Assembly: GCA_010094025.1 (NCBI GenBank)
Contig: ML991774.1
Coordinates: 560,821-624,820, forward strand
DNA: 64,000 bases
Direction of reading: 5' to 3'
DNA from: Viridothelium virens
Lineage: Eukaryota; Ascomycota; Dothideomycetes; Trypetheliales; Trypetheliaceae
Under the pieces are notes generated by a model that was given only the letters and a program-made list of their open reading frames with translations, searched no databases and was not told the origin of the DNA. Shown one piece after another: positions 5,815 to 62,201 of the stretch (positions are counted from its first letter, which is position 1; every line of letters starts with the position of its first letter). A program made the position numbers and the translations under genes.

Positions 5815-6712
5815 TCAGACCTTCTTCTCCATATAAGGCTGGCACGCCTCATAAACCTCCTCAAAACCAGGGTACTTGATAATTCTCTGAAACACCCCCT
5901 CATCCACCACCCTCGCAGCCTGAATCGATCCCGCAATGAAGAAATCCGTCCCGCTCGGCCGGGCACCCAGCACAAATGGCCCTTCCGCCCTACGCGACCG
6001 CATCAGCTCGCCAACAGCGCGGATGTCGCCATCCACCGCGTTCCAGACACTGTCCTCCTTGCCCAGGCCGAGCAAGTCCTCAAGCCGGTGCCCGAGCGCG
6101 GCCTCGCGGGTACGGCGGAAATAATCCTGCGCGCGCGGCGACAGGATGCCTATCTCGCGCGGCATCACTGACGTGCGGAACGCGGTGCCGACGACAGCGC
6201 GTGCTTTCGCTTCGATCTCGCTGCCCAGCTCCGACGTCAGCGGGACGGCGGGGTCGGGGTAGGTCGACTCGAGGAAGGGCGCGATGGCGGCGGAGTCCAT
6301 GATGTAGGTGTTGGTGGGCGTGTGCTGGATGGCGGGGACTGTGTATTTGGATCCCGAGGCGGATTGGCTGGGGGCCAGGCCGCTGGGGAGATTTTCTAGG
6401 TCAGGAGACTTCTTACGCGCGATACGAGGGTTTTGAGGCCGTAAGTTGGGATATGAGAGGGTGAAAAGGGTGATAAAGGTGACAAGGGAACGAAATGAGA
6501 TTGAAGGTGAACAATGAAAGCAAGAAGGCAAATATAACTCACAGCCCTTTCAACGTAGGCTCAATATCCGGAAACTCGAGGAAGACCGTCACGTAAGAGA
6601 TACGCTTATAATTGAGCATGAGGCGGATGCGCCAGACAGCGGGAGAGAAACAGACGTTTTTGGTGCAGGCCAAGTCATATAAAACAATCTGGGGCTCAGT
6701 TTGGGTGGCCAT
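5815..6712 (-). CDS. Etherase-like glutathione S-transferase
   Basis: Two exons on the minus strand (6712-6543 and 6382-5815) encode 245 residues. The N-terminal thioredoxin-like domain carries LYDLACTKNVCFSPAVWR, KYTVPAI and the PTNTYIMDSAAIAPFLE block that contacts the glutathione glutamyl group. An all-helical C-terminal domain follows, with GPFVLGARPSGTDFFIAG near residues 190-210. It resembles the fungal LigE/LigF-like etherase branch, which conjugates glutathione in detoxification or secondary metabolism. The 160-base intron is long for this window; I chose the acceptor before CGGCCTGG because it restores the family sequence around KGLGLAPS, whereas an acceptor nearer the donor would insert residues. 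Codons are C-ending in the 5-prime part and G-rich toward the 3-prime end, a pattern shared with four other genes here. Confidence 0.88.
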
Positions 6713-7716
6713 TTTATGCTACGCTCTTATGAAGACCTCATTGAAGGGGCAAAGTGCAGTTGTAGAATTTGTGATCGGTTAATGTAGACACCTGATACTT
6801 TCGAGTATATTGAAAAAAGGAGCTGCAAATGAAATCGTCTTTCAAATGGGGATAGGTAATGAGTGAAGGAAAGGACCAAGAGGCCGCTTTGGGCAACATT
6901 TGAACTGCAGTATAACGTAAGCGCAATGAATCCTTACACTCGCAGGAGCATTTGGGCACTAGCCCGCGGAGGCAGGTTGGCAAGAGAATATGATATGGGT
7001 ACGTATCAGATCTTGTAAGAATTCCCCGGGAGTACAGGTGCTGATCAATACTCATCAAAGTCTTGGCGGTCTCGACTAGCCATGGCAATTTGCATACAGA
7101 TGGCGATCTACAGGAGAAGAGCGAGGATCACCGCCATTGCGTCAATATTTATAGCATGGAGCCAGACTTCGAAGATCAAGAAAATCTTGACGGTAGGAAT
7201 CGAAATTACCTACAACTGTGTTGAATATTTGCTCTGGACGGGCTTGTCTAAATTGATCTGCTGCATTGGATAAAGAATCCACACTTCCAAGTGACTCGAT
7301 TCGCAACAACACATTTCCAGCTTCTTCGCTGAATAACTTGCACCTCAAAAGCTTCGCAGGGCAAAGCTGCAGAGGTTGCATCTCCTTGAGAAATTCCTCA
7401 TTCACAGTCTCGTGACGCCTTTAACCGAGAAAACATACTTGGTTTCTGATCAGCAGAGCAGAAACATGGAGTACCCGTGGGGAATCGAGTCTTCAATGGA
7501 CAATTGCCACCGTAGCTGAATGCTGCCTCAAAGCCATGCGCCAGTATCGTATGCAAAACATTCGCCGAAGACAAAACCGTGAGCTGTGATCCATCCTTCC
7601 CAATACCAAGATGAAGCCAACAGTGATTCCATCTTCCGTCTTGGGTTCTTGATGCATCGTATCTTTGACGACATTTCCGATCCATTTGCGCAGATTGAAG
7701 CAGGGCATCTGATCTG
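6713..7716. other. Intergenic region, no gene seen
   Basis: One kilobase between two minus-strand genes, containing the GST promoter and the 3-prime end of the FHA-RING gene. Several frames of 60-140 codons exist on both strands (for example 7398-7811 minus) but none has a recognisable domain or coherent splicing. Confidence 0.4.
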
Positions 7717-9627
7717 TCACTGTTCTTGGACCACACTTTCCAGGTTGCCAATTCCAGTCTGTCTTTCTGCTCTTCCTGCGCTGCCGTCCAGGATAAAGGG
7801 ACCTGCATCATTGCGTGGAGTCATGGGACCGTCTGATGCTGCCGTTTCCGCTCTTGTCAGGGCAAATTGCGTCGCCGAGCCAGGAGGAGAAAGTTGACCA
7901 TTGAGGCCGGCCGAAATTGATGAACTGCCACCAATAGGTACAGGTGTAGCACGAGGCACGCGGAGGCTACTATCAGAGTCTGGATCTGTAGGGTTGTTAT
8001 CAAACCGTGGCGAAGGGTTTTCCAGCTGCGATGGTAAGGCTGTGTGGTCGTCCCCTTCCACGCCGCTCGTACCATCCTCATCCGTGTCACCATTGGCATG
8101 AATGATAGGATGTTCAGCTACAGAAGACATTGCGCCAGTGACGGCCTCTTTTTCTTGGGTTTCTGCGGGTGCTTCTTCCCATTCCTCTTCGAAGTCTGAC
8201 AGGGGATCGTCGACGTCGGCCTCCAAATCTGCCATTGCGCGGCAGTTTGGACATTGGAAATGCGGGTATGCTTGGTCATTCAACATGGGGCGCACGCACT
8301 TGTAATGCCACACATGTGAGCATGGAGCTACGAAAAGGGACTGACAGGGCTATGCTTCTACATCAGCTAATACATCGAACGATTATGACGGGAAGATACT
8401 GACCGATATTGACATAAGGCAAATCGCGCACTCGGAAGTATGCGTCGATGCCGCGTCGCCTTCCCCTTGCGAGGTGGACTTGGCAAGATTTCGTATTCTT
8501 TTGTGTGTGCTTTTGCTGGTGATTTCGTTAGTAGTAGTGTGAGGATTTTGGAATGAGGTTGCATACTTGAAGCTATTTAACCCCTTTTGCCAACCTCGGT
8601 TGCACTCAATCCGAATTTTGACGCATCTGAATATCATCTCCTCTCCACCCCTAAAGTCTATCCCCAACTGGACAATATCTCCATCTGAAACTTGGTACGG
8701 CTTTGATTCGACACCTGGCTGGCTCAGGCGTATGTGGTTAAGAAAAGTTCCCGAGCTGCTTTTGACGTCCTTGATATACCACTGTCCATTTTGACACCAG
8801 AACTCGCAATGCCTCCTACTTACAACCTTTGACTTGAATCCCACAGGAGCAGCAGAAGGCACGTTCTCTGGAATTTCTGGATTGTTGTCTCTTTCTGAGT
8901 AACGTCCCACTCGAATGACAGACCATGAACTAGGTAGGGTCCGCGAGACAGTTGAGAAGTTCAGGGATGGTCGCGAACTCCTAGACTCTTGGAAAGGTAT
9001 GAAACGAATCAATGGCATCTGCTCAACCTGGGGACCATTGGGACCCAGAACTGGAGCCGACTCACCCCTCGCTCTGGTGTCTACAGGAGCATGTGGTGCT
9101 GGAACTGGTCGGCTCACGCTCTCAGCAGCAGAGGAAGAGCCATTGCGCGTCATTTTAGCAGTCGTAGGAGGTTGATCGCGGGAAGATGTGGATTTTGTCG
9201 AGGCAGATTCCGTGATAGGCTCGGCTGGCGTAGACTCAGTTTGTGTAGAGACCTGTGAAGCACCACTTCTATCTCCTCCCGCAGGAAGCCAACCGCTGAT
9301 GGATTGATGGGAGGCGGAGGAAGGGTCGGAGTTTCCAGAGTGCGATTGCGTTCGAGTTGCTGCAGCTCCGTCGGCACCCTCAGTAGTAGCGGGGCCGGTG
9401 GCGCTCTCAGTGACACGGCCTGGACTGGGAGTGCTGGTTGAGCGGGAAAATGGAGGCCGGCTTGATGAAGTTGGAGCAGTACTGCTATGTAGGTGGAGGT
9501 GATTGTGGGTGTAATTTCTCAGGTAGCTCAGGCCGCGCAGTCTCCCAGAGCGAGTGGGTGATGTTGGCGAGGCGGGTGAGGTTGACGTTGATATGGTGGG
9601 CGGGGACGGAGCGGGAACCGTGAACAT
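7717..9627 (-). CDS. dma1: FHA-RING E3 ubiquitin ligase, Dma1/Dma2 type
   Basis: Two exons (9627-8404 and 8349-7717) with a 54-base intron encode 618 residues. The first ~210 residues are disordered and Ser/Thr/Pro-rich. An FHA domain follows, with the phosphothreonine-pocket motifs IRVGRYSERD, VVSRRHCEF and KDVKSSSGTFLN. A RING of the Dma class comes next: CAICLMSIS, then APCSHVWHYKCV and FQCPNCRA, followed by an acidic tail. In yeasts this family ubiquitinates spindle-checkpoint, septin and polarity factors. The intron sits inside the RING, between MSIS and PCQS, and splicing restores the zinc ligands. The stop after LESVVQEQ gives a C-terminus ending shortly after the conserved MTPRNDAGPF block. 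It is divergent from MPP alpha with only about 250 bases between start codons. Confidence 0.93.
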
Positions 9628-9878
9628 GCTTGGGAGACCTGATCAATTCCGACGGAGGCAGCCGTATCTGGCCGATTGCAAAAGGGATGCGAAGAGGATT
9701 GGGGTTTGACGTTTCACGAGAGTTTGTAAAACGACTTTCAGCTCTGGATAATAGTACAGGGGTTTGCCGCCGCTTGGACCAGCATCCAACGCTGCTGGTC
9801 AGCACGCGAGTACGAGTGACGCGGTAGAGACGGAGCCGGACGCCAAACCCGTTGGAAAAACTTCATCTTCCATCTGCT
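9628..9878. promoter_or_regulatory. Divergent promoter, DMA1 / MPP alpha
   Basis: The 251 bases between the two start codons must hold both core promoters. No TATA box is obvious. The upstream frame from 9764 is open into MPP alpha but is not counted as coding, because the mitochondrial presequence begins at the ATG at 9879. Confidence 0.6.
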
Positions 9879-11733
9879 ATGCTGCCAGCCACGAGAGCGA
9901 CTTTGCGCCGCTCTGCACCTCGCCCACTCTCACGTCTATCGCAGACTGCTCACCGGACTTCCCGAACCTTTGCCTCCGTCGTCACCGCCCCGCAGAAGGT
10001 CTGTCTTGCCTGGGCCAAATCTTGATATCCAACCGACTAACAGCACAGCAGGATCCTACCGAGCTCGATCGAATTACAACCCTTCCCAATGGCGTGCGAG
10101 TTGCAACAGAGGCCCTGCCAGGCCACTTCTCTGGCATCGGCGTCTATGTGGATGCTGGCTCGCGATATGAGAATAATGCGCTGAGAGGAGTTAGCCATAT
10201 CATTGATCGATTGGCTTTCAAGGTATGAGGACCCATCATCCATCAAAGGACTTTTCCTGACACATGTAGTCTACGAAAAATCGCACTGCTGATGAGATGT
10301 TCGAATCAATGGAGACTCTTGGCGGAAACATCCAGTGTGCCTCCTCACGGGAATCGCTCATGTATCAATCAGCTACCTTCAACTCGGCCGTCCCATCTGC
10401 TGTTGCCCTCCTTGCAGAGACAATACGCAACCCTTTGATTACAGAAGAGGAGGTCCAGATGCAACTGCAAACAGCCGACTATGAGATAGGCGAGATCTGG
10501 TCGAAGCCAGAACTGATTCTTCCCGAGTTGGTTCACATGGCTGCATACAAGGATAACACACTGGGGAACCCCTTATTATGCCCAAAAGACCGCTTGGATA
10601 AAATCGACAGGAGCGTAGTCAACGCCTACAGGGAAGCCTTCTACCAGCCAGAAAGAATAGTGGTCGCTTTTGCAGGTGTCGATCACTTGGAGGCTGTCAA
10701 ATTGACTGAGCAGTATTTTGGCGGTATGCAGAGCGCGAAGGATCCAGTACTTTCTGGAATAGGCACGGAGACGACCCTTCAAGACTCCTCTAGCCCCGAG
10801 ACATCTCATCCTCAATCATCCCATTCACAAACACCAACGCCCGTACAGGAGCCTTCACGACTTCTAAGCAAGATCCCCTTCCTCAAGAACCTCTCCACCT
10901 CCGCCAAGAACTCCGCTTCCGTCGCCTCGTCAACCGACCTTTCAAATCTCAGTCAACCCACCTCTCCAAACTCCAGTCTCGACCTCCACGCCCCCTCCCA
11001 CTACACCGGCGGCTTCCTCAGCCTCCCAGCGATCCCCATCCCTCCGAACCCGGCCCTCCCCCGCCTCTCACACATCCACCTCTCCTTCGAAGCCCTCCCC
11101 ATCTCCTCGCCCGACATCTACGCCCTTGCCACCCTCCAAACGCTCCTCGGCGGCGGCGGCTCCTTCTCCGCCGGCGGGCCGGGGAAAGGCATGTACTCGC
11201 GGCTGTACACGCACGTGCTGAACCAGCACGGCTGGGTGGAGAGCTGCGTCGCCTTCAACCACTCGTACACCGACAGTGGGCTCTTCGGCATCTCGGCGAG
11301 CTGCGGCCCGGGCTATGTCGACCAGATGCTCGAGGTCATGTGTCGCGAGTTGGCGGCGCTGACGCACGAGTCGGGCCCGAGCGCGTTGGGCGAGGGCGAG
11401 GTGCGCAGGGCGAAGAACCAGTTAAGGAGTTCGCTGTTGATGAATTTGGAGAGTCGGATGGTGGAGTTGGAGGATTTGGGGAGGCAGGTGCAGGTGCATG
11501 GGAGAAAGGTCGGGGTTAGGGAGATGTGTCAAAGGATTGATGATGTGACGGTGAAGGATTTGAGGAGGGTGGCAAGGAATGTGCTTGAGGGGAGTCTGGT
11601 GAATAATGGGCAGGGGAGCGGAGCGCCGACAGTGGTTTTACAGGAAGGGGAAGAGGAGGGGAGGACCTTGAAACCTATGAAATGGGGTGAGATTCAGGAA
11701 AGGATTGCGAGATGGAAGTTGGGAAGGAGATGA
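9879..11733 (+). CDS. MAS2: Mitochondrial processing peptidase alpha subunit
   Basis: Three exons (9879-9998, 10049-10222, 10270-11733) encode 585 residues. The N-terminus is an Arg/Ser-rich, acid-free matrix-targeting presequence. The M16-type fold follows. It has HIIDRL in place of the beta subunit's zinc motif HxxEH, so this is the non-catalytic, substrate-binding subunit. The hallmark glycine-rich loop (GGGGSFSAGGPGKGMYSR) lies near residue 390. With the beta subunit it cleaves presequences in the matrix. The second acceptor is ambiguous by one codon (CAG|CAG). A Ser/Pro/Thr-rich insert of about 70 residues precedes the C-terminal domain. Third codon positions are C-rich from 10860 to about 11150 and G-rich from about 11390 to the end. 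Confidence 0.95.
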
Positions 11734-11905
11734 TCCCCACTATGTTTATTCTATGGTCTGGTGCTCCGCTCTGAAGTTACTCCGGTCAGGGTTACTTGAA
11801 GTATTATAGACGTATTTTGTACGATCAAGAGGCTAGGGCTTTCGCCGTTGTGTAAATAAGGGTGTTGGATAACTATCATTTGGACCATAGGTAGAGAGCT
11901 TCGCA

Positions 11906-13399: not shown

Positions 13400-13737
13400 G
13401 CTTTCCTTGGAAGTGGAAGAGTAGGTGTGATGATGGTCCCACCATTGCTGCTGCTGCGAGATCGCGGGATTTCACTGCTTTCTGCAAGCCATTTTGAACA
13501 GAATAGCAGAGTCGGTCGAGCTTTGCAGAAATTTGGCAGGTTGATTGCTGACCTTGGTCTTGTGTGTTCTTGTGGGAGTTGCAAGCGTTAAACGGAGCTG
13601 GTCCCGACGACGGAAGACGTCCGCCTTTTTATACGTACCTCGCTCGCAGACAGCAGCATCTTCTCCTACCACAACCGCGTCCAGACGTATTGAACCGAAC
13701 ATATTCCCGTCGATGGGCTCCAGATTGATGCACCACA
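13400..13737. promoter_or_regulatory. Divergent promoter upstream of VPS16
   Basis: This 338-base interval separates two start codons on opposite strands. Open frames cross it but give no family match. I see no clear TATA box or other recognisable element. Confidence 0.5.
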
Positions 13738-16521
13738 ATGTCAGTTCCCACTTCGGAGTGGGAGAGAGTAGGCGATCGGTTCTACCGCAAAATTCCACTC
13801 TACCAGGCTGTCTTCGATCAAGATCTTGAGCTTGAGAACTACATCGTAGTTGGAGCTCCTCTCAGTGGTGCTGTAGGTGAGAACGAGTAAGAAAGACATA
13901 CAATATAGCATTGCTAATTCATATCAGCAATCTACCGCGATGACCAAAAAGTACACACTTTGCGAGCGCCTACGTCTGGAAAGGCAGGTATCAGCATATA
14001 CAGCAGTTCAGGGAAGCTCATAAGGCATATCAGCGTACGATTCGCACTCCTTTGACATCATATGCTATTGCTAATGCGTTGAAGTGGGACAAGGGCTCAA
14101 TAAAAGCTCTCGGTTGGTCAGAAGACGAACAACTCCTCATTGTCACCTCTGACGGTTCGGTGCGCTGCTATCACGACCTCCAAGGTGACTTCGTGCCCTT
14201 CACATTGGGGAATGTAGGCTTCCACAACCGAGTTTGTCAACCATGCTAGTCTAATACGAACAGGGTGCGGAAGAACATGGAGTTCTCGAATGTCGATTTT
14301 GGTCATCCGGTTTTGTAGCTCTCTTAGGGAACAATACTCTCGTCGCTGTCTCAAACTACGACGAACCTCGTCCAAAATTGTTGGCGAAGCCTCCCACCGA
14401 ACACGTCGTATCATGGGCGATTATACCTCCATCTCAGAGCCTCTCGCTTTCTGTTGAGGTTTTACTCGCGGTTCGGCAAACGATCTATGTGATTGATATC
14501 TCTGAATCTGAAGACCGAATGTTGCAAAGAGGCCCTTTCGATCATATCAGCATATCCGAGAACGGCAAATTCGTTGCACTCTATACAGAGGATGGCAAGG
14601 TATGGGTCATCAGTAGCGATTTTCAGAACAAATTGAGCGAGTACGACACACAAGCAAGGACACGGCCGAGAGCGATGGAGTGGTGCGGCAACAACGCAGT
14701 TGTCCTGGCTTGGGAGGATGAGGTCCATATTGTTGGACCTAATGGTGCTTCTTCTAAGCAAGTAACCGGAGGAGGGCAACGATTCTCGGGCTGACTCAAC
14801 GTAGATTCTTTTACGACAATTGGGTCCATCTAATTCCCGACATTGATGGCGTTCGTATCTTGACGAATGACGTTTGCGAATTTCTTCAGAAAGTCCCAGG
14901 TATGTCTGGAGCTCTTCTTTTAATGAGGTCGCTGATGGATGTTACCAGATGTTGTTGAGGATACTTTCAGACTGGGATCGACCTCATCGTCTTCCGTTCT
15001 CGTCGATGCTGCGCGTCAGCTAGAGAATCAGTCTCCAAAAGCAGATGACAGCATCAAGTTGATACGTCCCGTCTTAGACGAGGCTGTGGATGCCTGCATT
15101 AAAGCCGCCGGCCACGAGTATCGCATTCCCCTCCAGAAGCAACTACTGAAGGCGGCGTCCTTTGGGAAATCAGTACTCGATCTGTATAACAGCGATGATT
15201 TTGTCGACATGTGTGAATTACTACGCGTGCTAAACGCCATACGATTCTATGAAATTGGTCTGCCGATATCGTACGACCAATTTCTACGGTTAACGCCCGA
15301 GAGACTGGTGAAGAGGCTGATCAATCGGTCGGAATATTTGCTGGCTCTGCGAATATCGGATTACCTTCATCTATCGACGGAAAGAATCTATGTTCACTGG
15401 GCGTCGCAAAAAGTCCGCCTATCTACAGACAATGATGAAGAAACTTGTCGACTTATTGTCGAAAGGTTGAAGGGCAAGGTAGCCGTCTCTTACGAAGAGA
15501 TAGCAAAAGCTGCTTTTGATGAAGGGCGGGCCCAACTTGCCACTGGACTTCTGAACCAAGAACCCCGAGCGGGAAAGCAAGTGCCCTTACTACTGAATAT
15601 GGAGGAAGACTCGATCGCACTGGACAAGGCCATTGAAAGTGGAGATACGGACCTGATTCTTTATGTACTGTTGCACATGAAAAAGAAACTACCCTTGGCA
15701 ACGTTTTTCCGAACAATCAACACACGTCCACTGGCTACCGCGATGATTGAAACTCTAGCTTTAGAACAGGACAGGGATTTAGCCAAGGATCTATATTACC
15801 AGGACGACCGCAGAATAGATGGCTCCAACCTTTCATTGCTGGAGGCACTCAGACAGAAAGAACCTGGCCCAAAAGCCGATAAGCTAAAAGCAGCTGGGAG
15901 ATTATTGCAAGACTCCAAAGAGAACACTTTTCAGGCAAAAGCAATCGATGAGGCACAGAAGCTCATCAAAGTCCAAACAGCCCTTGATACCGAGCTTGAC
16001 GTACACTTATCTGGACTGTCGGTCAACGAAACAATATTTGAACTAATTCGGATCGGTTCGATAAAGAGGGCGCAGAAGATGCAATCAGACTTCAAGGTGC
16101 CAGACAAGACATACTGGTGGATAAGGTTACGAGCACTTGTGGCAAAGAGAGATTGGACCGAATTGGAGGAAATAGGCAAGAACAGGCGTAGCCCGATTGG
16201 TTGGGAGGTAAGTACTTCTAGGATGATTAGATTTATATCATCCCTGCTGACCAGTATTTCCCATAGCCATTCTTCAACGATATCTTGTCTGCTGGAAACA
16301 CAAGGCTGGCATCTGTGTTCATTCCCAAATGCACTGCCTTGCCAGTGACAGAACGGATAGAGATGTGGCTGAAGTGCGGACTCGTTGTGAAGGCCGCTGA
16401 AGAGGCTTCTCGAGCGAAAGACATGGAGAGTCTCGAAATGTTGCGAGGCAGAGCAACTGGCAATGCTGCTCTGGAAGTCGAGCGACTGATGTCCCAAGTG
16501 ACACCTCAAAAGAGGAGATGA
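13738..16521 (+). CDS. VPS16: Vacuolar sorting protein VPS16 (HOPS/CORVET core)
   Basis: Seven exons (13738-13876, 13928-14034, 14085-14213, 14264-14757, 14805-14899, 14949-16207, 16267-16521) give 825 residues, the usual VPS16 length. The N-terminal beta-propeller contains GDRFYRKIPLYQAVFDQDLE, SWDKGSIKALGWSEDEQ and ECRFWSSGFVALL. The helical VPS16 C-terminal domain includes LLEALRQKEPGPKADKLKAA and ends ALEVERLMSQVTPQKRR. VPS16 is a core subunit of the HOPS and CORVET tethers for endosome and vacuole fusion. The intron after GPNGASS can only be spliced with a GC donor at 14758 (AA|GCAAGT); the nearby GT gives a stop. The third intron ends in TTGAAG, a weak acceptor, but it restores the conserved WDKGS motif. 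Confidence 0.95.
14758..14804 (+). other. GC-AG intron in VPS16
   Basis: The 47-base intron begins GCAAGT and ends ACGTAG. Joining AA to A gives Lys and continues into FFYDNWVHLIPDIDGVR, the family sequence. The alternative GT donor four bases downstream is out of frame and meets a stop. The donor matches the known consensus for GC-type U2 introns. Confidence 0.8.
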
Positions 16522-16810: not shown

Positions 16811-18709
16811 TCAATTCCCTTGAGTCTCTCCAAGTGGTCCGCGTACCCCAAATCTTGACCGATCATCCGCCATCTTCTTCCTGAAAAGCGCCAAATCCTT
16901 CAGAATATCATTTGCGCGCGTGTGAACCTCATGCGTCACCTCATCCTTCCCATCATGATACCCTTCGTCCTCATCTTCCTCGTACTCCTCAACCGGCACA
17001 TTCTCTTTGTCTCCTTCCATCTCCACGCCCGAATCCGGCTCGCTCTTCGCTATCGGCAGCCTAATGGGATTCTTAAGCTCGCCCACCACAAGCCCCAAAT
17101 GCCGCCTCAAACTACTGATCTCACGCTCCAACGTCTCATTCAATGGCCGCAGCTCCTCGACCTCATTCGTCAGCGCCCGAATCTTGCACTCGCTGACCTG
17201 CCGCGTCTCCTCCATGAGCCGCTGCATCGCCTGCACCTGCTTCTGATAGTCCTCAAGCTCCGTCGCCTGGCGATCGAAATCCTCGCGCTTCCGCGTCGCC
17301 GCCGCATTGAGATTATTCTGCAGCGTGCGTATCGTCTCCTGCATACTGAGGATCTTGGCATCGCGCTCGGCCGCAGTGACGGCGTCCTGGTTGACCGTGG
17401 CCCGGGTGCGGATGCGTTTCGCCTGGTCGGCGTAGCGCAGCGTCGACAGTGTCTCGTCGTAATCCGAGGGCGCGATGCAGGCCACCATGGCGGTTTTGGA
17501 GTTGCCCCCTAGCGAGTCTTTGAGCAGCCAGGTGAGCACGGAGTCGCGGTAGGGGACGACGTCGCGGGTCCGGGACGCCTTGCCGGAGCTGCTGCTGCCC
17601 CGTCGTTGTCGCTTGGGATCTGCGAGGGCGCCGATCACGCGTCCGAGCGTGCTGAGAGATTGGTTGATGTTGCCGCCTTCGCGGAGACGTTGGCCGGTTG
17701 CTTCGGTGGACTTGGCGCGTTCGGAGCCTGCTAGGTCGACGAGTCTCATGCGGGCGCAGCGCTCGATGGTCTCGTCTGTACTCATGTCGTGCTGGATTTG
17801 CTTGAGCATTATGGTGAAGACTGCGTGAGAGCGAGAGGACGTGTCATTCATTTTTGTGGACGCAGTGGTTCGATTCTGAAAGACTTTGTTAGCATTCATT
17901 TGTCCGATCGAGTGTTCTTCATACGATATCTCCAATCCTCATCAGCCGCTCGACATCTGCGTAACATTTCACTGGCTCGTCTGTTAAGTTCTGGACATAA
18001 ACACCGTCGGCCTTGGATTCCCGGATTTTCAGGTATTGTGTTGCATTCGTTCGAGCAACTAGAAGATCTCGAACATGCTCGTTGTAAACTTCGAAGTAGG
18101 AAACATGAACGTTGTAAGTAATGCTCGAGGACTGTTCAGATTCGATGCGTTCAAAGAGTCCCTCACAAGTCCGCGGTATTAATCCAGGCTGTTCCGATGA
18201 GCCCATCATGGTATAGCTCTTGCCCGATCCTGTCTGTCCGTATGCGAAAATGCAGGTATGGTACCCATCGAAGTTGTGATCCAAGAATTCTTCCCCGAAA
18301 GAATTGTAAATGTCCTCCTGATGTGCATAGTGGGCATCTGCTTCGTTATGAGACCAAAATGACTTGTCGAACGTAAATGACTTGTCCTCAAAGATTTTGC
18401 GCGATTGTGAACGGGAGTTCGCTGGATCTATCTCGCTGGGCGCATTGAGGGTCGTTTTTTGTGAGGCTGGATCCATTTTGACAAGGCACCTTGCTCCTCT
18501 TTCAATTTCTGATTGTGTCAGCTTCGCGACAAAATCAAGATCGCTTCACTCGTACCTCGCTTAATGAATTTCCTCACACGTACAACGACTTTAACGTTGC
18601 CGCTGTCACTGTCAAGAATGCTAGAATCCATTGCGCTAATGGCAGGCTCTCTGGCACGAAGCGACGGCGCCGATGCTGTTGATCCGTACATGTGTTGCTC
18701 ATACGCCAT
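16811..18709 (-). CDS. Short kinesin-3 family motor (UncB-like)
   Basis: Three exons (18709-18556, 18508-17925, 17875-16811) encode 600 residues. The motor domain fills residues ~40-400: [18 protein letters not shown], the P-loop [13 protein letters not shown] near residue 145, switch I in [17 protein letters not shown] and switch II in [20 protein letters not shown] and [13 protein letters not shown] point to the kinesin-3 (Unc104/KIF1) family. A coiled coil (about 415-510) and an acidic patch follow, then the protein stops. The FHA and PH cargo domains of full-length Unc104 are absent. The likely match is the short second kinesin-3 of filamentous fungi (UncB), but I am unsure. An alternative splice near 16840 would replace the last ~14 residues by a tail ending at about 16709. 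Codon ending shifts from C to G along the gene. Confidence 0.87.
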
Positions 18710-29115: not shown

Positions 29116-30824
29116 ATGTTTCTCAGAAGTTCTGTTGCTCGGACGGCCTCGCCGCTGTTCTGTACTTCGAGAGCTCCATCTAGCACCATGCCTTTGAGAG
29201 CTAGAATTATGAATGCCGCCCTGACTGGGCAAAGACTGGTCAATTAGGCCTAACTCGGTATCCACAACCACTTCACTGACCATTCGCAGATGTCGACAGA
29301 GGCTGAAATTCCCCGCGAACTTCCAGGCGATGAACCTGACGATGTTCTGTTCAATAATATATATGGCGTCAGAACAATTGAGTTGAATAGGCCAAAGAAA
29401 TTGAACTCCTTGAACGGGTCGATGGCACGGAAAATCATACCAAGATTGAAGGTGTGTTTTAAGGAATATCTCAATTACCGAGGAACGTTCTGACAGACTC
29501 TATCAGGAATGGGAGAAATCACAAATGGCTAATGTCGTCATCATCAAAGGAGCAGGAAGAGCATTTTGCGCAGGAGGTGATGTTGCAGCGCTGGCGCAGC
29601 AAAATACCCAAGGACCCAAGGGCCAGGAAGAATCAACAGAATATTTTAGCCTCGAATACAGGCTCGATCATCTGGTAGCAACTTACTCAAAGCCTTACGT
29701 TGCCTTCATGGATGGAATCACCATGGGAGGAGGCGTTGGCTTGAGTGTGCATGCACCTTTCCGGATCGCAACCGAAAAGACTGTATTCGCCATGCCAGAA
29801 ACCACCATCGGCTTCTTCCCAGATGTTGGAGGAACGTTCTTCCTCCCACGCCTAGACGGCCAAATCGGAACGTACCTTGCCCTCACAAGCGAGCAACTCA
29901 AAGGTCCAAACGTTTTGTACGGCACCCCCTCTGTTCCCCAATCCTCTCCATTCATTTCCCTTCATATCCTAACACCCAGTTTCCCACAGCTACAACGGCA
30001 TCGCAACGCACTACATCGACTCGACCTCCCTCCCCGACCTCGAAGCTCGCCTCGCCGAACTCCACTTCCGCGACACCGCCTCCCTCCCCGACCGCCTCTC
30101 CATCATCAACGCCACCATCTCCGAGTTCTCCACCGGCATCCCCCGCGACACCTCGCGCCAACTCACGGGCGCCATCCGCACCGCCATCGACACCGTCTTC
30201 TCCCCCGCGCACTCCCCGACGCTCCCCTCCATCCTCTCCTCGCTCGACGCCCTCGCCTCGGACACCACTGCTGCCCCCACCGTACAGGACTGGGCGAGCA
30301 AGACGCGTGCCACGATCCTCGAGCGCAGCCCGACGTCGCTGCTCGTCGCGCTCCGCGCGATGAGAGAGGGTGCTCGCTGGTCGGTTGCCGAGGCGTTCCA
30401 GCGCGAGCACCGCATTGCGGCGAGGTTTATGCGGCATCCGGATTTTGTGGAGGGGGTGTCGGCGAGGTTGATCAGGAAGCCGGCGGAGAGGCCGAGGTGG
30501 CGGCCGGAGCGGATTGAGGAGGTGGATCCGAGGACGGTGGATGAGTTCTTTGCGGAGGAGGGGAAGGACGGAGCGCAGAGGTTGGCGTTGTTGAAGAGTG
30601 GGCCGGGGGCGGATTACTCAACTTATCCGCATCGGTGGATTGGGTTGCCGCCGGAGAGGGATGTGGAGGCGAGGGTGAGGGGGGTGAAGGGGACGAAGGA
30701 GGAGGTGGTGAGGTATTTCTTGCTGGAGGGGAAGGGGAAGCAGGGGGTGAGGGAGAAGGTGGAGGAGATTTTGGAGAGGAAGGCAAGGGCTTTTGGGGAT
30801 GGCTCGCTGGAGTGGATAGCGTGA
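29116..30824 (+). CDS. EHD3: 3-hydroxyisobutyryl-CoA hydrolase, mitochondrial
   Basis: Four exons (29116-29238, 29290-29451, 29507-29916, 29990-30824) encode 509 residues. A presequence (MFLRSSVARTASPLF) is followed by the crotonase fold with GVRTIELNRPKKLNSLN, the oxyanion loop KGAGRAFCAGGDVAAL, and GITMGGGVGLSVH followed by MPETTIGFFPDVGGTFFLPR, the HIBCH signature. It hydrolyses 3-hydroxyisobutyryl-CoA in valine breakdown. A second Met at the start of exon 2 could give a cytosolic form lacking the presequence. The last exon shows the strongest codon switch in the window: almost every third position is C before about 30290 and G after about 30380. The donor at 29917 (GTACGG) restores NVFYNGIATHYI. 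Confidence 0.94.
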
Positions 30825-34438: not shown

Positions 34439-35727
34439 GATTGTGACAGGATGAAGTTGAGATGGTTCACAGAGCGGGGAGGCTGGAGGTAGAAGAGGCA
34501 ACAAGATCGGGGATCGAGCGGCTCCTGGATTGTCGTCGAGGTAACAAAGGAGACAGCGGGAATGCGTATGGCGTATGAAGGAGGGTCGCACAGCGAAAAA
34601 GAGAGATCAGACGAGAATGCGAAAGCGGTTGAATGTAGAAGACAACGGCGGAAGTACGGATGCTAAAGTAGGAGTGCAGCAGCAGTGATGGTAGAGGGGA
34701 GGTGAGATGGGATTGGGGAAGCTGGAGGAGAGCAGAGCGTGGGAGGGCGGGCGACTAGAGCGACTAATCAGAGCGGCTAGGGCGACAAGAGCGACTAGGG
34801 AGCCTTCTTGCCACCCACGACACCCACTACCAGCCTTGGCGCCTGTCGCACCCGTCGATCTTGTCCCATTTCATCCCAGCTCTGGCCCGTTCGATTGCGA
34901 CGATGCTGGTCACTGCTGGTGCTCCTGGTGATGCTGATGATGCTCTGCCTCGCCCAACATCGATTGACATGATTGCCATGGACGCCATCGACCTCCATTG
35001 ACGTAACACCGCCATTTTCCTCGTCGAGACCTACAACTTTCGCTCTCTTCACCTCTTCCTAATCCGATGTTAGCACTGGAAGCTGATGGTTTGTTGTGTT
35101 GACAACAGGCGAGAACCGACTACCCTACCACCCTACTGCGCACCGTGGTTCGATGCACCAGTCTAGGGGTGCGATGATCCGACACACCCTGGTTCGTCGT
35201 CTCGCGCTATCTAAGTACAGGTTCTCCCCTAGCTTTAGCACCGTCTACACCGCCCCCAACTGCTCCTCAACTCAGCCTTCTCCGGTCAAGCCAACCACGG
35301 CAATTTATGCCTTTGTTCTCGAAGGCTTCGATTTTTGATATCTGTAAAGCGTGCTGATATTTACACACTACTTCTTTCGCCAGTGGTTCTATTTCGATCG
35401 TTGAAGTAGGGCTGCATGTAAACGGCCGTGCCACGCACATCGTGTTTTGAAACCACCACTTAACCTCAAGTCTCGATGAGAACATTAATGATATTTAGCT
35501 CTGAAGCCTTGTCTTCTAGTTTACAATGAGTATGAGAAGAAACTGTCTCCGCCCATTGACTACCAGCAGTATGCAATCACTCACGGCATCTCTGGCGTCA
35601 ACACGCGACCATGTCCTACCGCGTGACCACCTCCGCATCCCAATGACAGTTGAGACTTCAACGCTACACCCTTGACAATGCAGAGGGACAACGCCGAAAA
35701 ATGCAGAAGCGAAAGCCTTTCAGGTGC
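34439..35727. other. Long leader/intergenic region with short repeats
   Basis: 1.29 kb upstream of the low-complexity gene. An imperfect GCGACTAGA-type repeat lies at 34748-34800. Upstream minus-strand start codons suggest a long 5-prime leader with small upstream frames. No gene is supported. Confidence 0.45.
34748..34800. repeat. Imperfect GCGACTAGA tandem repeat
   Basis: About five diverged units of GCGACTAGA/GCGGCTAGG/GCGACAAGA follow one another on the plus strand. The array lies in the presumed leader of the low-complexity gene. Role unknown; possibly simple replication slippage. Confidence 0.6.
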
Positions 35728-52502: not shown

Positions 52503-52765
52503 AGTAGGATGGAAGAGATCACCTTTCTATCTATTCATTTCCAATAAAAAGAATTCTGAATCCTGTAATTTATAGGCGCCATAGTGCATACCCAAGAATT
52601 TACATACAGTACGGTACTCGACGGAGTACTGAGGTCGCCTTGTGCACGCCGAACGGAGAGCTTCATGCTTAGCCTGACCTGGACTAGTTTCTTATTCTTT
52701 GTCCTCCAAATGCTCCCACCAGCACGATTGACACAATCCCTTGCCTTCGCGGTGTACGCATTACG

Positions 52766-53321
52766 ATGTCCCATCTGACTGACTACGTCACGCTCGTTTC
52801 CAGCGACGGCTTCGAATTCGTGGTCCAACGCTCCGCAGCCCGCATCGCAGGCGCCATCAACCGGATGCTCGACCCCAAAAGTGAGCTACCCACCGTCCAC
52901 TAACCGTCTTTATTTACTTTCCCATTTCCACTCCCCTCGGCATTTTGCCCCACCATTCTGCCTTTCCTCGTTCCCATTTCCTATCCAGTCGCACTCGACG
53001 CGAACCCTCTCCAAAAATGACGGTGGCTGATAGCGTTTGGCTATAGACAACTTTTCCGAAGCCCTTACGAACCGCTGCGAGCTGCGCGAAATCAACGGGG
53101 TGGTGCTCGAGAAGGTGTGTGAGTACCTCTACTACAACGAGAAGCACAAGGACGCGCGAGACGTGCCAGACATGGACATTCCGCCGGAGCTATGTTTGGA
53201 GTTGCTGATGGCGGCGGATTATCTGAATGGTGAGTTGGCGACTTCTTGGCCTGATGAGTTGGAAGGGGAAGCGCGGGGCGAGCAGTATTAGAGAAGCGTT
53301 GCTGACCTATGTCTAGTGTGA
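52766..53321 (+). CDS. ELC1: Elongin C (SKP1/BTB family)
   Basis: Three exons (52766-52880, 53047-53229, 53317-53321) encode 100 residues. DYVTLVSSDGFEFVVQRSAA, INRMLDP, NFSEALTNRCELREI and the long block from GVVLEKVCEYLYYNEKHKD to IPPELCLELLMAADYLN are close to universal elongin C. It forms cullin-based ubiquitin ligase adaptors and, in fungi, an Elongin A partner. The last exon is only five bases: it completes a Val codon and supplies TGA. If that intron is retained the protein gains 22 residues ending at 53291. The short form matches the family length, so I prefer it. First intron is 166 bases. Confidence 0.92.
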
Positions 53322-53919
53322 CCGAGATTCCGAGCGGCGTACTTGGGAGGAGATGATGAGATGAGCTAAATGATACCATGGGATGGGATTTATCTTCTTA
53401 GCGAGGTGTTGAGGTATCTTTTGAAATGGAATCAAACCGGTCGAGCTCCGCTGGGCTCAGAATGACCGGTCAATTAGTGCTTCGAGCTGGCCCCATCGGA
53501 ATAATCAGACTCATACACTAAGATTTGAGGCATGCCCTAGAACTACGACTTGAATGTGCAAACCGATACAGCATCACGAGCATATACGTCTTGCGCTTCC
53601 CATGTGAGCCTGACGCCTATAGTTGGTGCAAAATCAAACGTCGTCTATATTCAGTCAGGTTCAGGCAATGATGCGATGACGCTTTGACTTTATTCCAGGC
53701 GAGACACGACGGATCATAAATTTGGTCAAGGTCATTTATGTGGTCCGCAGCAGCGGCGATTATTGTTCTATCTACGAGGCAGCATCATCATGATGCATAC
53801 AAAGTCGCCGTCTATCATACATAACAGGGGTTTCCATTGAGCCCGGATGCCTTTGCTGTGTTTGAGGCATATGGAATCGTGCCGAGATTACCTCTGCAAT
53901 ATGCAACCACTTCCATGTT
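53322..53919. other. Convergent 3-prime region
   Basis: 598 bases between elongin C and PRP43 stop codons. No gene seen. Confidence 0.4.
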
Positions 53920-56339
<2,420 letters not shown>

Positions 56340-56965: not shown

Positions 56966-59552
56966 ATGGACGAGCAAATGCCCATTTTTTATGTTGGCCA
57001 GCATGAGACAAATCGCACCCTTCCAGTCACTGAGGATGTTGTGCTCCAAGCTCACAGCTGCAATGCAAGTCTCCTTCTTCAACCTCTCGCCAGACGTGAA
57101 CTAATGGAGCATCAGTATGACATGGTCACTACCCCTGTAACCACGCCATCATTTCATTCCCGTACACTTTCCATTCTGTCAAACTACAATGCTACCACAA
57201 ATTCCGAGGAAGCTGACTGTACTCCGTTTCCTCTAATCCCACCCCTAACACCTTTGGATACTTTCCTGGCTCCTACTGAGCATGTCACCCAGCAACCCGT
57301 TGTCACAGCACCTTGGATAGACCTCGCTTCTCCGGATCCGTTGATTGCGAATCTCTCTCAACAAGTGTTTAAATTAGAAGTCGCCTACGCTGCCTTTTGT
57401 GGCGCAACGTCGGTCCTTATTCGAGGTCCGAGATTCAGATGTGGAGCTTCGCATGAGCCTTCAGTTACTCATTTTGCGCAAGCTATACTAGAAGGGCTAA
57501 ATATAGGCCCCTATTTGCACCTCAGTATTCTCCTCCCAATGGTGGAAAGTAAAGACGAAGAAGAACCGGAACCCGTAGGGAGTTTGGCAACATTTGCTAG
57601 AGAAGACTTCTTAACCGGCTTGCCCAAGAGGAAATCGTCTTCATTTGATGCACATCGGAGCTGGGACACCTGGAATGTTGTTCGGACCATTTGTAACTAC
57701 CATGGAAGACTCTCCTTAGGTAAGGAACCATTTTCCTAGCGAGCTTCCCACATCTTTGCCTGGGTGCAAAGAAAAGACAGAATCCACTATGCAAACGCGC
57801 TTAGATTACCCAAGAGTGCTAGAATGAGTACTGATATAGCTCTTCACCATAGCTCTATCTATTCCTCGGCATTTACCTGACGTATCAGTACAATCGCGTT
57901 GGTTCGCTGAGCCTCTGCGAATGCTTGAACTTACTGCCGAATCCTTCGCCAAGAATGCAAAGGGCTATCCAGTTCTCACGAAGCTTGCTCAAGGTTTCAT
58001 AGGACGTTGCATGCGCCTACGAACTAGTCCCTGGTTACTGCTTACAGATGTTGGCTCGATTCCCGGTCTGAATAACCCGGAGGAGATATTTCCGATGTCG
58101 GACGGCATGCTTTCGCCAACCAAGACTGAAGACATGTCACGAGAGAACAGCAAGTCCGCTTCGCCGACGTCATCTGATCCCACTCCGGCTGAAGCGGCAG
58201 CCATCCCCCAACCAAAAAAGAAGAACAAAGATCCGACACCACACTTGAGCTACATTCGCTTTCTTCAGAGAAACCAGCCAGTGAAGACCACGGTCGAACG
58301 CTTCGGAGGAGGATATCAGGATTATCTTCAATCTCCATTGCAACCGCTGGCTGACGACTTAGAAAGTATCACATACGAGGTGTTCGAGAAGGACCCAGTC
58401 AAGTACGAGTGGTACGAGCGCGCCATTGCTCTTGCCCTTGCGGATTGGCATCCGTTCGGCAAACCAGCATCGTCACCCGACGGTAGCATCATCATTGCAG
58501 TTGTCGGAGCCGGCCGGGGTCCTCTGGTTACTCGAGCCTTACGAGCTGCGGCAACCACAAACGTCAAGGTCTCAGTGTGGGCTGTAGAAAAGAATCCCAA
58601 TGCGTACGTGCTGCTTCAAAAACATAACTTGGGGATGTGGGGAAACGCAGTGCAGATAGTGAAATCCGACATGCGATCCTGGCAGGGTCCTGTACTCACC
58701 GATGGACAAATCGGCAAGGTCGATATTCTGGTGTCGGAGCTACTGGGTTCCTTCGGAGATAATGAGCTCTCGCCCGAATGCTTGGATGGTGTGCAACATG
58801 TCCTCAATCCTGGGACGGGAATCAGCATTCCCGCTAGCTATGCGGCGCATCTTACACCCATTGCGAGTCCAAGACTGCATGCAGATATCATGGGGCGAGC
58901 AGTCTCAGACAAGGATGCTTGGGAAGTCCCATACGTCGTCTTCCTCCACCAAATGCATTATCTGTCCTCTTTGAACCCAACGTTAACTGACGGCCATTCT
59001 TCGAAGATGGAGCTTCCCACCCCCAATGTCCAGCAAGCTTGGGAATTTCGCCACCCTCAACCGAATTCCACATTGATTCAGTCCCAAATGAGGAAAGGCG
59101 GCAGTGTGGCCGGTGGCGGTGCTGGAGGTTTCTCTGGTGGTGATGGTGCAAATGACCACAATGCACGATCTACCACCTTGCGGTTTGCCTGCCAAAAAAG
59201 GGGGATTTGTCATGGTTTAGGTGGGTACTTTGAGACTGTTTTGTACAAAGGCCAAAGTACCGAAAAGACAGACAATGAGTCGAGTAAGAAAGTCGAGCTG
59301 AGTACCAATCCAGTGACTATGGAGGAAAAGAGCAAGGAGATGATTAGCTGGTTTCCAATATTCTTTCCATTGAAGGATCCACTCTATATACCCGATGATT
59401 CAGAACTTGATGTCAGCATTTGGCGACTTACCGACGACCGCAGGGTGTGGTACGATTGGATGGTAGAGGCATATGTGGTCGTAAAAGATAAAAGGGTCAG
59501 GATAGGTCTCTCTGGTTTACACTCAAGTAGGAAAAATGGCTGTCTCATGTAG
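56966..59552 (+). CDS. Protein arginine methyltransferase PRMT5
   Basis: Two exons (56966-57720 and 57852-59552) encode about 818 residues. The N-terminal TIM-barrel-like domain begins with PIFYVGQHETNRTLPVTEDV. The Rossmann domain holds the SAM-binding segment IIAVVGAGRGPLVTRALRAA, VEKNPNAYVLLQ, and the double-E region DILVSELLGSFGDNELSPEC. The C-terminal beta barrel includes YDWMVEAYVV. The family symmetrically dimethylates arginines on Sm proteins, histones H2A/H4 and others (Skb1/Hsl7). A Ser/Pro/Lys-rich insert near 58100-58230 and a Gly-rich loop (GGSVAGGGAGGFSGGDG) near 59095-59150 expand it beyond the typical 640 residues. The intron between LSL and ALSIPRHLPD is 131 bases. Confidence 0.94.
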
Positions 59553-60571
59553 CTCTCGGCACTAGCAATAAAAACCGAGCTAATCACTGGTCTGACGACA
59601 ATATGAATCAAAATGTGAAATAAAATGTGAAATGAAATACCATCCGTAGTACTGACTTGATTTTGGTAGAGTAGACAGTCGATACCTAAGACGCAATGGG
59701 AGATCGTCACTTCTTCGACGGATAAAGGGACACCAAAAGTGGTGAACGGGCAGTAAATGCGAGAGCAAGTGAGAACCTCAAAAAAAAAAAAAGGGAAGTA
59801 GGAGGGAAAAAAATATTGACAAGAGTGGGATTCGCTGTAATAAAGTCAACATAAGAAATCTCCCAATGAGAGAGAATCACTCACAACCCACGCCCTTTCA
59901 GATTACGGATTTAGTTGCCTAAACGTAACGCCTTAGACCACCTAGTGAGGTTAGCATATCCTGGCCTGGATATCGCATGGTGTTGACTGACTCGGCCATC
60001 TTGCCTGCGCTAAGTTGGAAATTTTCCTAACGCACAATCATACTGTTCAAGGCGATAGCCACGAATCTCTCGTTTAGCGGGCATTATCTACCCGACTATC
60101 ATCTGTGCCTCCACCACCTTCACATCAGATAGCGATAACGAGGCGTACACGGGACAGCTCATAGATAAGATATAGCTAGTCCTGTGAGCAATAGGTTATC
60201 TGTAAACCACCTAAGAGAATGATGTGATGTGAGCGAAACGAAGCCTACTAATCGCGTTCTGAGATGTCGGAGTAAGTGCACTGGGCCATGAAATAGGGCA
60301 GCATCACAGTTTTCACCATCCGAAAATGTTTCTTAGCTATCGTGAAGTCATGATATTATTTTTGAAAGCTATAATACAAGTTTGCTCCTGCAAATCTATG
60401 CACTTGAATGGCTAGATCAACATTGGAATACGACGGAATCCTTGCAGATCGATGACAATATCTGCAGACCAGCTCGACGCATGCAATGAGCAGCGCGACC
60501 ACAGAAACCACTCCTGGGGGAAATATATACAATTGCTGCCGCACTCACGCTGTACGAGTACATTGGTAGAA
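59553..60571. other. Convergent intergenic region
   Basis: One kilobase between PRMT5 and PPG1 stops. It contains a doubled AAAATGTGAAAT near 59610-59635, a run of 13 A at about 59780-59792 and GATA-type strings (AGATAAGATA near 60164). No gene or RNA motif is recognised. Confidence 0.4.
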
Positions 60572-62201
60572 TCATAAGAAGTACTCAGCACGAGTCCCTC
60601 TACTTGAAGGTACCGCCCGTTTTGAATCGGGCACAGCACTGAAGATGGTGAATTTAGGGTCCAGGTCTTCTGCGAGGTTCATGATGGATGCAACATTCCC
60701 ACATCGGTAACAGTAGTTTGGAGCTGACCATACTGTGACAACGTCCTTATCTTTGAAATGATACTGCAGGAAAGTCAATTGCTGACAGATGATGGGAGTT
60801 GCGAGTGTATTGACTGACCTTGTAGCCCTCATTTACCAGCTGGTGCGCTCTGGCTATTAATTGCAACCCGTTCACATGGTTGAACTGCAGAAAGTCGAGG
60901 TCAGTTGAGTCTTCGTCATCATTCAGGATGCAACACCAACCTCTGAAGACACCTTGTCACCAAAGAGCCATCCTGCACCTCTCGGCGAGACAGCCCACGT
61001 ATCAACATCTTCTGGATCACTCCACACGAGATCGCAAAAGGCGCCCTCATGTGGTATTTCTTGTGCCCTTGCCACGACTCTGATTTGATCCAGAGTCCTT
61101 ATCTCTGGACTTAATCCTCCGTGCACACACAGGACCTTGCCATCAACGATGGCTGCTAGGGCCAAAAAGTCGAATACCTGACAACAAGATTTCCAAACCG
61201 AAGCGTTACCGTATTTGGTCTGGCATTCCTCGTAGAATCCATAAACCTGAGTTATTTGCCGTGACTCGTGGTTCCCCCGGACAAGCGTAACTTTGTCAGG
61301 GAATCTGTAAGGTCGTTAGCCAGAACTGCCGAAGCCGTCCAAATCCACGATAACATACTTAGCCTTCAAACACATCAACAACGTAAACGTCTCCAAACTA
61401 AAGTACCCCCGATCCACAAAATCGCCCAAGAAAATAAAATTCTGCATCCCATTCGCCATCGCGGGATTCGTATTCCTCTCCGACACATTAATCCCAGAAT
61501 CACTCTCCGTCCGACTCGTCTCCCTCCTCACACTCAAACTCCTCCCTCTATTCTCCTCCTCCTCCGCCAGAAACTCATCCACCTCCTCATCCTCCTCCTC
61601 ATCCCCCGGGCTCGTCCCCCCAGGGCTCGTCCCAGAGTTCGCCGACCCGCTGCGCTCGCTCGCGCTGCTCGTGTATGCGCTGTCGGCCTGGTAGCGGCGC
61701 TTCATCTTGCGCCGGGCGCGCGGGTCGCTGATCTGGGTCGGCGGCTCGAGGTCGGCCATGTTGATCGTCTTGGTTTTCGGGGCGGAGGCAGGAGGAGGCG
61801 AGGAGGAGACAGCGGCGGACGCACCGTCGTTCGGGATGCCGCCGGCGACGCGGAAGAGCTCGAGAAGGTCGTAGAATTGGCCGTGGATGTCGCCGCAGAC
61901 GGTGACGGGGCTGCGGACGGGTTGGATGTTGGATTCTGTTTAAGGGGGTGAGAAGGCTTGGCTAAGGTAGGAGAGGAGTGAAAGATTGGGGGTTCTATGT
62001 TGGGGGGATGAAAGCGGTGGATGAGGGAGAGGGATTGCGCGGACCTTCCATTAAGAGTTCTTTGCAAATCTCACAGAGACGCTTCATATCGGCTTCCGGG
62101 AGGTATTTGCACCTTTTGGCTGCTTCGAGCCATTCGTCGGGACCTCCGCCAGGCGATATACTTGCAGGACCTGGTTGAGGAATCTCCTCCTCTTTCGACA
62201 T
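60572..62201 (-). CDS. PPG1: PP2A-like phosphatase PPG1 with long insert
   Basis: Five exons, from 62201 (last exon ends 60572), encode about 455 residues. The start has [20 protein letters not shown] and [20 protein letters not shown]. The metal-binding motifs [19 protein letters not shown] and RGNHESRQ are intact, as are [17 protein letters not shown] and [11 protein letters not shown]. The C-terminus is YFL, the PP2A-type methylated tail. An insert of roughly 115 residues, Ser/Glu-rich and disordered, lies between the first two metal motifs; canonical PP2A has about 15 there. Filamentous fungal PPG1 proteins carry a similar expansion, as far as I recall. PPG1 works with STRIPAK-like complexes in fusion and development. 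C-ending codons in the 5-prime part give way to G-rich codons. It is divergent from UPF3. Confidence 0.92.

What the first reader, a model, noticed from the sequence alone, without database searches (positions are those of the whole stretch)
5815..61990. Same-polarity C-to-G codon switch in five unrelated genes
In five genes the coding strand starts with C-ending codons and then changes to G-ending codons, always in that order: GST (5815-6380, minus), MPP alpha (C-rich 10860-11150, G-rich 11390-11720, plus), kinesin (C-rich coding at 17430-17800, G-rich at 16920-17330, minus), HIBCH (C-rich 29990-30290, G-rich 30380-30820, plus), and PPG1 (C-rich coding at 61640-61940, G-rich at 61330-61630, minus). 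Because the order follows the coding strand whichever strand that is, it cannot come from replication direction alone. The switch occurs mostly at synonymous sites inside local GC peaks, and neighbours such as TRM3 lack it. Candidate causes are strand-asymmetric repair or GC-biased gene conversion around an intragenic break hotspot, or transcription-coupled mutation with R-loop-prone 3-prime halves. I know of no named description of this pattern in fungi.
Basis: seen in the sequence. Interest (0 to 1): 0.72.

Follow-up and report, generated by a model that had tools for sequence, protein, structure and literature searches.

The report
GC-skew reversals near gene 3' ends
In this fungus, short GC-rich peaks just upstream of stop codons are C-rich on one side and G-rich on the other, a mirror-symmetric DNA scar that looks like the mark left by recurrent chromosome breaks or recombination rather than by gene direction.

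Summary
It shows mirror symmetry about a centre. In 334 kb from three contigs, 27 of 30 GC peaks, and 21 of 21 above 0.65, switch C to G. Paired wobble runs occur 694 times C-to-G and 0 times G-to-C, then 159 to 0 on an unseen contig. Arms are about 400-460 bp. C-arm introns, DNA just past stop codons and codon positions 1 and 2 are affected too, so the process acts on DNA, not codons. Two components separate: a GC bias near the centre, and a C-over-G strand bias strongest 300-450 bp out, which plain GC-biased gene conversion does not give. Centres lie 171-766 bp (median 361) upstream of frame ends, mostly in tail-to-tail pairs (17 of 21). Best reading: footprint of recurrent breaks, probably meiotic recombination hotspots. 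Skew reversal at hotspots is known in mouse and yeast; strength, coding location and 3' anchoring are new. No break map was available.

The parts
5807..6507 (.). Site 1 (GST gene, coded on minus): + strand C-rich 5807-6157, G-rich 6157-6507, centre about 6157, 339 bp upstream of the stop
   Evidence: scan f 0.39; 300-bp GC 0.69; GST_C_7 E 1.4e-16 on minus
5815..6549 (-). GST-family open frame bearing site 1
   Evidence: Pfam; convergent neighbour 3340-4911 (+), Peptidase_S10
10926..11626 (.). Site 2 (mitochondrial processing peptidase alpha-like gene, plus): C-rich 10926-11276, G-rich 11276-11626, centre 11276, 455 bp upstream of the stop
   Evidence: scan f 0.55; GC3 0.83 around the centre
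10270..11733 (+). MPP alpha-like open frame bearing site 2
   Evidence: Peptidase_M16 and M16_C; best PDB match MPP alpha chain 1hr6_A
16959..17659 (.). Site 3 (kinesin, minus), the weakest of the five, best centre about 17309
   Evidence: f 0.31 at best centre, 0.15 at GC peak; below the 0.35 scan threshold
16811..17938 (-). Kinesin motor-domain exon bearing site 3
   Evidence: Kinesin E 3.6e-55; convergent neighbour 14936-16345 (+), Vps16
30009..30709 (.). Site 4 (HIBCH, plus): C-rich 30009-30359, G-rich 30359-30709, centre 30359, 463 bp upstream of the frame end
   Evidence: scan f 0.62, the strongest in the window
29973..30824 (+). HIBCH-type (ECH_2) 3' open frame bearing site 4; the 5' part of the domain lies in frame 29450-30514
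   Evidence: ECH_2 profile 164-335 here and 25-164 in 29450-30514
61335..62035 (.).
   Evidence: scan f 0.55; a model intron 61936-62074, C 54 G 12 on the coding strand, lies in its coding-upstream arm
61316..61939 (-). Calcineurin-like phosphoesterase exon bearing site 5
   Evidence: Metallophos E 4e-8
52715..53415 (.). Sixth, unlisted C-to-G site, centre about 53065, not in an identified gene, between a + gene ending 52500 and a - gene ending 53923
   Evidence: scan f 0.36; models

Best explanation
Each site is the composition scar of a recurrently used DNA break point, most likely a meiotic recombination hotspot, placed about 360 bp upstream of a stop codon and preferentially in genes whose downstream neighbour is convergent. 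Shown: a centre with mirror-symmetric arms of about 400-460 bp, a GC bias highest within 150 bp of the centre, and a separate strand bias in which the strand running 5'-to-3' towards the centre gains C and loses G. Inferred: the centre is a double-strand break whose position scatters by 100-150 bp. Near it both strands are affected alternately, leaving mainly GC bias (ordinary GC-biased gene conversion). Further out the side of the break is fixed, so the two strands keep different roles: the 3'-ending single strand that is kept and invades, against the resected and resynthesised strand. A bias that depends on strand role, in mismatch correction or in resynthesis errors, then writes C on the invading-strand side and G on the other. 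One simple form would be that mismatches containing G are corrected towards the donor more often than mismatches containing C. That form predicts C up, G down and A equal to T, as seen. It is my own proposal and untested.
For: Mirror symmetry. Decomposition at fourfold sites of 21 site genes (20 of 23 scan sites plus kinesin): GC bias b 1.5-1.7 within 150 bp falling to 0.04 at 550-700; strand bias s 0.35 at 0-75 bp rising to 0.95-0.97 at 300-450, 0.22-0.23 at 550-1000 and 0.02 beyond 1000; A and T about equal (t between -0.07 and 0.19). Twofold sites: C/(C+T) 0.82-0.91 but G/(A+G) 0.22-0.32 at 150-450 bp, so on one strand the A/G pairs move away from GC. DNA level: introns in the C arm C 0.38 / G 0.11 (5 introns, 352 nt; 4 of 5 with C over G) against C 0.25 / G 0.20 in 112 other introns; skew after the stop 0.53 at 200-300 bp from the centre, equal to the CDS value 0.52. 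Positions 1 and 2 also shifted. A SPO11-type domain is encoded in the genome (PF04406, E 3.4e-13). GC-skew reversal at hotspot centres is reported for yeast Spo11 hotspots, with mutational bias as the suggested cause (PMC8276760). Strand-biased mismatch resolution set by break processing is shown in mouse cells (PMC9001825 abstract and discussion).
Against: No recombination, Spo11 or polymorphism data for this organism were available, so no break is shown. Fungal hotspots are described as associated with promoter-like features (PMC13186367 passage), not 3' coding DNA. [quoted passage not shown] G-arm length correlates with distance to the stop (rho 0.63), and the skew decays faster after the stop at 300-500 bp (0.27 and 0.14 in the first 100 bp past the stop, against 0.51 and 0.40 in CDS), which a process blind to gene structure would not predict by itself. 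The four model introns on the G side are not G-rich overall (C 0.24, G 0.20; 1 of 4 with G over C). Recalled, not tested: simple cytosine deamination of the 3' overhang would give the opposite sign.
Confidence: 0.5

Rival explanations
1. Transcription-linked mutagenesis in tail-to-tail gene pairs: read-through from the convergent neighbour, polymerase collision or a cryptic bidirectional start inside the gene, with R-loops that expose opposite strands on the two sides.
For: Pattern stronger where the downstream neighbour is convergent within 1 kb (34 of 37 genes with right>left, 13 of 37 above 0.3) than at longer convergent gaps (10 of 16, 1 of 16) or with same-strand neighbours (25 of 41, 3 of 41; within 1 kb 11 of 17, 1 of 17), and stronger for shorter convergent gaps (rho -0.40, p 0.003; none for same-strand gaps, rho 0.006). 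Centres anchored near stops.
Against: Arms are nearly equal although transcription crosses them in one direction. Convergent read-through predicts skew through the intergenic gap; it is 0.03 by +150 bp after the frame end. Usually only one gene of a pair has it (rho between partners 0.03, 34 pairs). Collision with the recalled vertebrate sign (G-rich coding strand) gives the wrong order. A site on contig C20 sits in a gene whose downstream neighbour is same-strand at 976 bp.
Confidence: 0.25
2. Replication initiation sites: leading-strand asymmetry gives C left and G right of an origin.
For: Correct sign (recalled rule); recalled models in which polymerase pushes helicases to convergent gene ends.
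Against: Strand bias drops to about 0.2 at 550-1000 bp and 0.02 beyond 1000 bp; replication skew should extend for kilobases. The central GC peak is not explained.
Confidence: 0.1
3. Selection on codons or mRNA structure, the C arm pairing with the G arm.
For: C and A preferred on one side, G and T on the other, as pairing would need; 14 sites fold slightly better than synonymous permutations within arms (mean z -1.13, sem 0.35); with 12 sites and 100-codon blocks z is -0.82 sem 0.35 against -0.20 sem 0.27 for 16 control genes.
Against: With 33-codon blocks, which keep the composition gradient, the difference is not seen (sites -0.44 sem 0.39, controls -0.29 sem 0.25). C-arm introns and post-stop DNA are affected.
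Confidence: 0.05
4. Chance or annotation artefact of GC-rich frames.
For: GC-rich DNA keeps frames open on both strands, and gene models here are homemade, with some wrong strands found and corrected.
Against: Order test needs no genes: 694 to 0 and 159 to 0. Strand supported by Pfam in 20 of 21 site genes.
Confidence: 0.02

Closest known systems
GC-skew reversal at meiotic double-strand-break hotspots (yeast Spo11 hotspots, PMC8276760; mouse, Smagulova 2011 as cited there)
   Same: Skew changes sign at a centre, with the two sides reversed.
   Different: There an average profile over mapped hotspots; here seen in single genes and very strong when pooled (C 0.65 against G 0.10 at fourfold sites 300-375 bp out, 21 genes), inside coding DNA and near stops of mostly convergent genes. 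Whether the sign agrees could not be read (figure not held).
GC-biased gene conversion peaks (dog hotspots, PMC3861134; gerbil GC-rich regions, PMC7403616; passages seen)
   Same: Local gain of GC; in gerbils amino-acid sites are affected as well.
   Different: Plain gBGC favours G and C on both strands equally; here A/G pairs in the arms move towards A.
GC skew at 3' ends of genes linked to R-loops and termination in human (recalled, not looked up)
   Same: G-rich coding strand near the 3' end.
   Different: Here preceded by an equally strong C-rich arm, and mostly inside the CDS.

Membership tests
Meiotic hotspot with GC-skew reversal | Skew reverses at a centre | tested here: met
Meiotic hotspot with GC-skew reversal | Centre coincides with mapped Spo11 breaks or crossovers | not testable with these tools
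   no map for this genome
Meiotic hotspot with GC-skew reversal | Organism encodes the break enzyme | tested here: inconclusive
   PF04406 one match over cut-off at C75, profile 25-62 of 62; a partial exon match, so a SPO11-type domain is present, its function not shown
Plain GC-biased gene conversion | Local GC peak | tested here: met
   fourfold GC about 0.83-0.85 within 150 bp of centres
Plain GC-biased gene conversion | Equal gain of G and C on each strand | tested here: not met
   G/(A+G) falls to 0.22-0.32 while C/(C+T) rises to 0.82-0.91 on the same strand at 150-450 bp
Replication origin skew | Sign change with kilobase-scale extent | tested here: not met
   s 0.02 beyond 1000 bp
Promoter or CpG-island R-loop skew | Skew change located at gene 5' ends | tested here: not met
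   no comparable switch from first ATGs of 44 long frames; centres near stops
Transcription-coupled asymmetry | One sign along the coding strand | tested here: not met
   sign reverses within the gene with nearly equal amplitude

The most novel reading that the evidence does not exclude
A strand-asymmetric form of biased gene conversion or break-linked mutagenesis, directed to the 3' ends of tail-to-tail genes, strong enough to rewrite coding sequence, so that break positions and strand roles can be read from one unannotated genome.
Probability: 0.4. Interest if true: 0.8.

Novelty: new variant of a known kind. Interest (0 to 1): 0.62.

Why it matters
If the centres are break sites, sequence alone would map recombination in this fungus to within about 100 bp. 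It would also separate two biases that are normally mixed: a strand-blind GC bias and a strand-role-dependent C/G bias. Reversed skew at hotspots has been put down loosely to mutational bias (PMC8276760); here the effect is large enough to test mechanisms. The link to convergent gene ends would also contrast with the promoter association described for fungal hotspots.

Tried and rejected

Codon or RNA-structure selection: tested by folding, not supported.

Pair-level cause: strengths of the two genes in a convergent pair do not correlate (rho 0.03, 34 pairs), so it looks per gene.

Shared centre motif: a first count gave GC-rich words such as CTCGCGC (12 of 23 centres, 0 of 46 arm windows). 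Against a composition model of the centres no 7-mer among 3559 survives correction (best p 7e-5), and CTCGCGC is not among the ten best. No motif claimed.

Minus-strand or opposing genes behind the four site genes without a convergent neighbour (MPP alpha, HIBCH, Asd4, HisPhos): Pfam found none above cut-off in the 10 frames tried, about a fifth of the frames of 70 aa or more listed for the four gaps.

Rows dropped or wrong: in the 21-gene set, three of 23 scan sites without identified genes (C4 435997, 453345, 613901) were left out, and kinesin, below threshold, was added from the finding. My first gene lists had wrong strands or frames: site 379458 was called minus where Pfam puts TRAPP on plus; and in the frame list, three of 18 site frames (at 591179, 622505, 128864) are not the Pfam-supported ones. 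An earlier wording of mine, 23 of 23 peaks at GC 0.64, was a rounding effect: the exact count is 24 of 25 (the exception C4 456685, f -0.15).

Literature: 10 searches listed no paper that I recognised as describing this pattern in filamentous fungi; most listings were read by title and abstract start only, and the library is partial.
Full report
WHAT WAS CHECKED. The window is C4:560821-624820 of a 30.7-Mb, 175-contig genome. I fetched 200 kb upstream on C4, 50 kb of C1 and later 20 kb of C20 as comparison.

THE LOGIC OF THE FINDING. Reverse-complementing a C-rich then G-rich stretch gives again C-rich then G-rich. All five cases are C-left and G-right on the + strand. So the argument against replication is empty, and the real information is mirror symmetry around a centre plus the near absence of the opposite order.

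IS IT MORE THAN CHANCE. Peaks chosen by GC alone: 30 of at least 0.62 in the four stretches (334 kb), 27 C-to-G, 19 strongly (f>0.2), 0 strongly G-to-C; 22 of 25 outside the window, Wilcoxon p 2e-5. By threshold: 24 of 25 at 0.64, 21 of 21 at 0.65, 20 of 20 at 0.66. A test that needs neither peaks nor genes counts eight C at every third base followed after 30-299 bases by eight G at every third base: 694 overlapping matches in 14 clusters, against 0 for the reverse order, in 314 kb; 159 against 0 on C20. With seven letters it is 1090 (19 clusters) against 8 (3 clusters), with six 1916 (38) against 82 (19). A scan for skew change of either sign finds 23 C-to-G and 15 G-to-C at 0.35; by their coordinates 14 of the 15 lie 393-659 bp from a C-to-G centre and are arm edges. 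The exception is window 34803.

ANATOMY. Averaged over 23 sites, C rises to 0.46 and G falls to 0.145 on the left, mirrored on the right, GC reaches 0.65 at the centre, A and T fall about equally, and beyond about 600 bp only small fluctuations remain. At fourfold sites of 21 site genes, read on the strand running towards the centre, C is 0.64-0.66 and G 0.10-0.13 at 150-375 bp. Splitting this into GC bias and strand bias shows different shapes: GC bias is largest within 150 bp of the centre, strand bias at 300-450 bp, with a small remainder (0.22-0.23) at 550-1000 bp. At twofold sites T/C pairs go to C (0.82-0.91) while A/G pairs go to A (G fraction 0.22-0.32) at 150-450 bp. All 21 site genes have C over G on that strand at synonymous third positions, but sites were selected on overall skew, so this is a consistency check.

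DNA, NOT CODONS. Introns in the C arm are C-rich and G-poor overall (5 introns, 4 with C over G). Four model introns on the G side did not show the mirror effect (C 0.24, G 0.20), two of them in the poorly modelled gene at C4 436 kb. DNA after the stop codon keeps full skew at 200-300 bp from the centre (0.53, 349 nt) but less at 300-500 bp. First and second codon positions shift in the same sense, so the pressure overrides some protein constraint. Folding tests do not support selected pairing between arms once the composition gradient is kept.

WHERE THE SITES ARE. In 21 site genes, 20 with Pfam support for the strand, centres lie 171-766 bp upstream of the frame end, median 361, sd 137, against sd 714 for the distance to the frame start. 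In nine frames of 1000 nt or more they sit in the 3' part (mean 0.33 of the frame from the 3' end, p 0.04; with 150-bp margins p 0.016). Seventeen of 21 have a convergent nearest downstream neighbour (p 0.017 against 53 of 94 for gene ends in general); the other four have same-strand neighbours 1.6-2.8 kb away. A metagene that ignores the site list agrees: with convergent neighbours under 1 kb away, third-position G minus C goes from -0.126 to +0.160 between codons 130-260 and 0-130 before the stop, against -0.040 to +0.015 for same-strand neighbours under 1 kb (Mann-Whitney p 0.0016). On C20, unseen before, three sites appeared; two lie in Pfam genes, about 376 and 408 bp from their frame ends (Peptidase_M3 and MFS). 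The first has a same-strand neighbour at 976 bp, so convergence is a tendency, not a rule; the neighbour of the second is unclear and the third site has no Pfam gene.

INTERPRETATION. Symmetry, size, central GC peak and strand-role-dependent arms fit a recurrent break with scattered position. Two biases are needed; ordinary GC-biased gene conversion supplies only one. A SPO11-type domain is present. Reversed GC skew at hotspot centres has been noted in yeast with mutational bias proposed, citing the mouse work (PMC8276760, passages and section 15 read; the mouse paper was not held). Break processing can make mismatch correction strand-biased (PMC9001825, abstract and discussion read), though there mismatch type mattered little. 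I put the break reading at 0.5, transcription in convergent pairs at 0.25. The association with convergent ends and the dependence on gap size are better explained by the transcription rival; arm equality and the lack of skew in the gap are better explained by breaks. A combination, breaks caused by convergent transcription, is not excluded.

LIMITS. 1.1% of the genome, homemade gene models with known strand errors (listed under Tried and rejected), one genome, no population or functional data, no relatives held for this organism.

Noticed in passing
window 34600-35000: The only free-standing G-to-C switch above threshold in 314 kb (f -0.41, GC 0.56), purine-rich then pyrimidine-rich, outside my gene models.
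   Followed up: partly
window 10929-10978, 61574-61604, 61603-61633: Three of the five tandem arrays found in the window lie in the left (+ strand C-rich) arms of the MPP alpha and PPG1 sites.
   Followed up: no
C4:436000-437540 (L011): Gene model with GC3 about 0.90 over its last 800 bp; two short frames tried near 435997 had no Pfam match. May not belong to the same class.
   Followed up: no
C4:555586 (L023): Convergent pair, 233 bp gap, in which both genes carry strong sites (0.84 and 0.94), so the + strand reads C-G-C-G; the WD40/cofilin pair at 366464 also has two scan sites.
   Followed up: partly
window 16931-17512 (+) and other site genes: Long antisense open frames overlie GC peaks, probably a by-product of composition.
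   Followed up: no
first ATGs of 25 long frames with divergent upstream neighbours: Mild C3 excess over G3 (0.29-0.34 against 0.20-0.22) in the first 300 bp.
   Followed up: no
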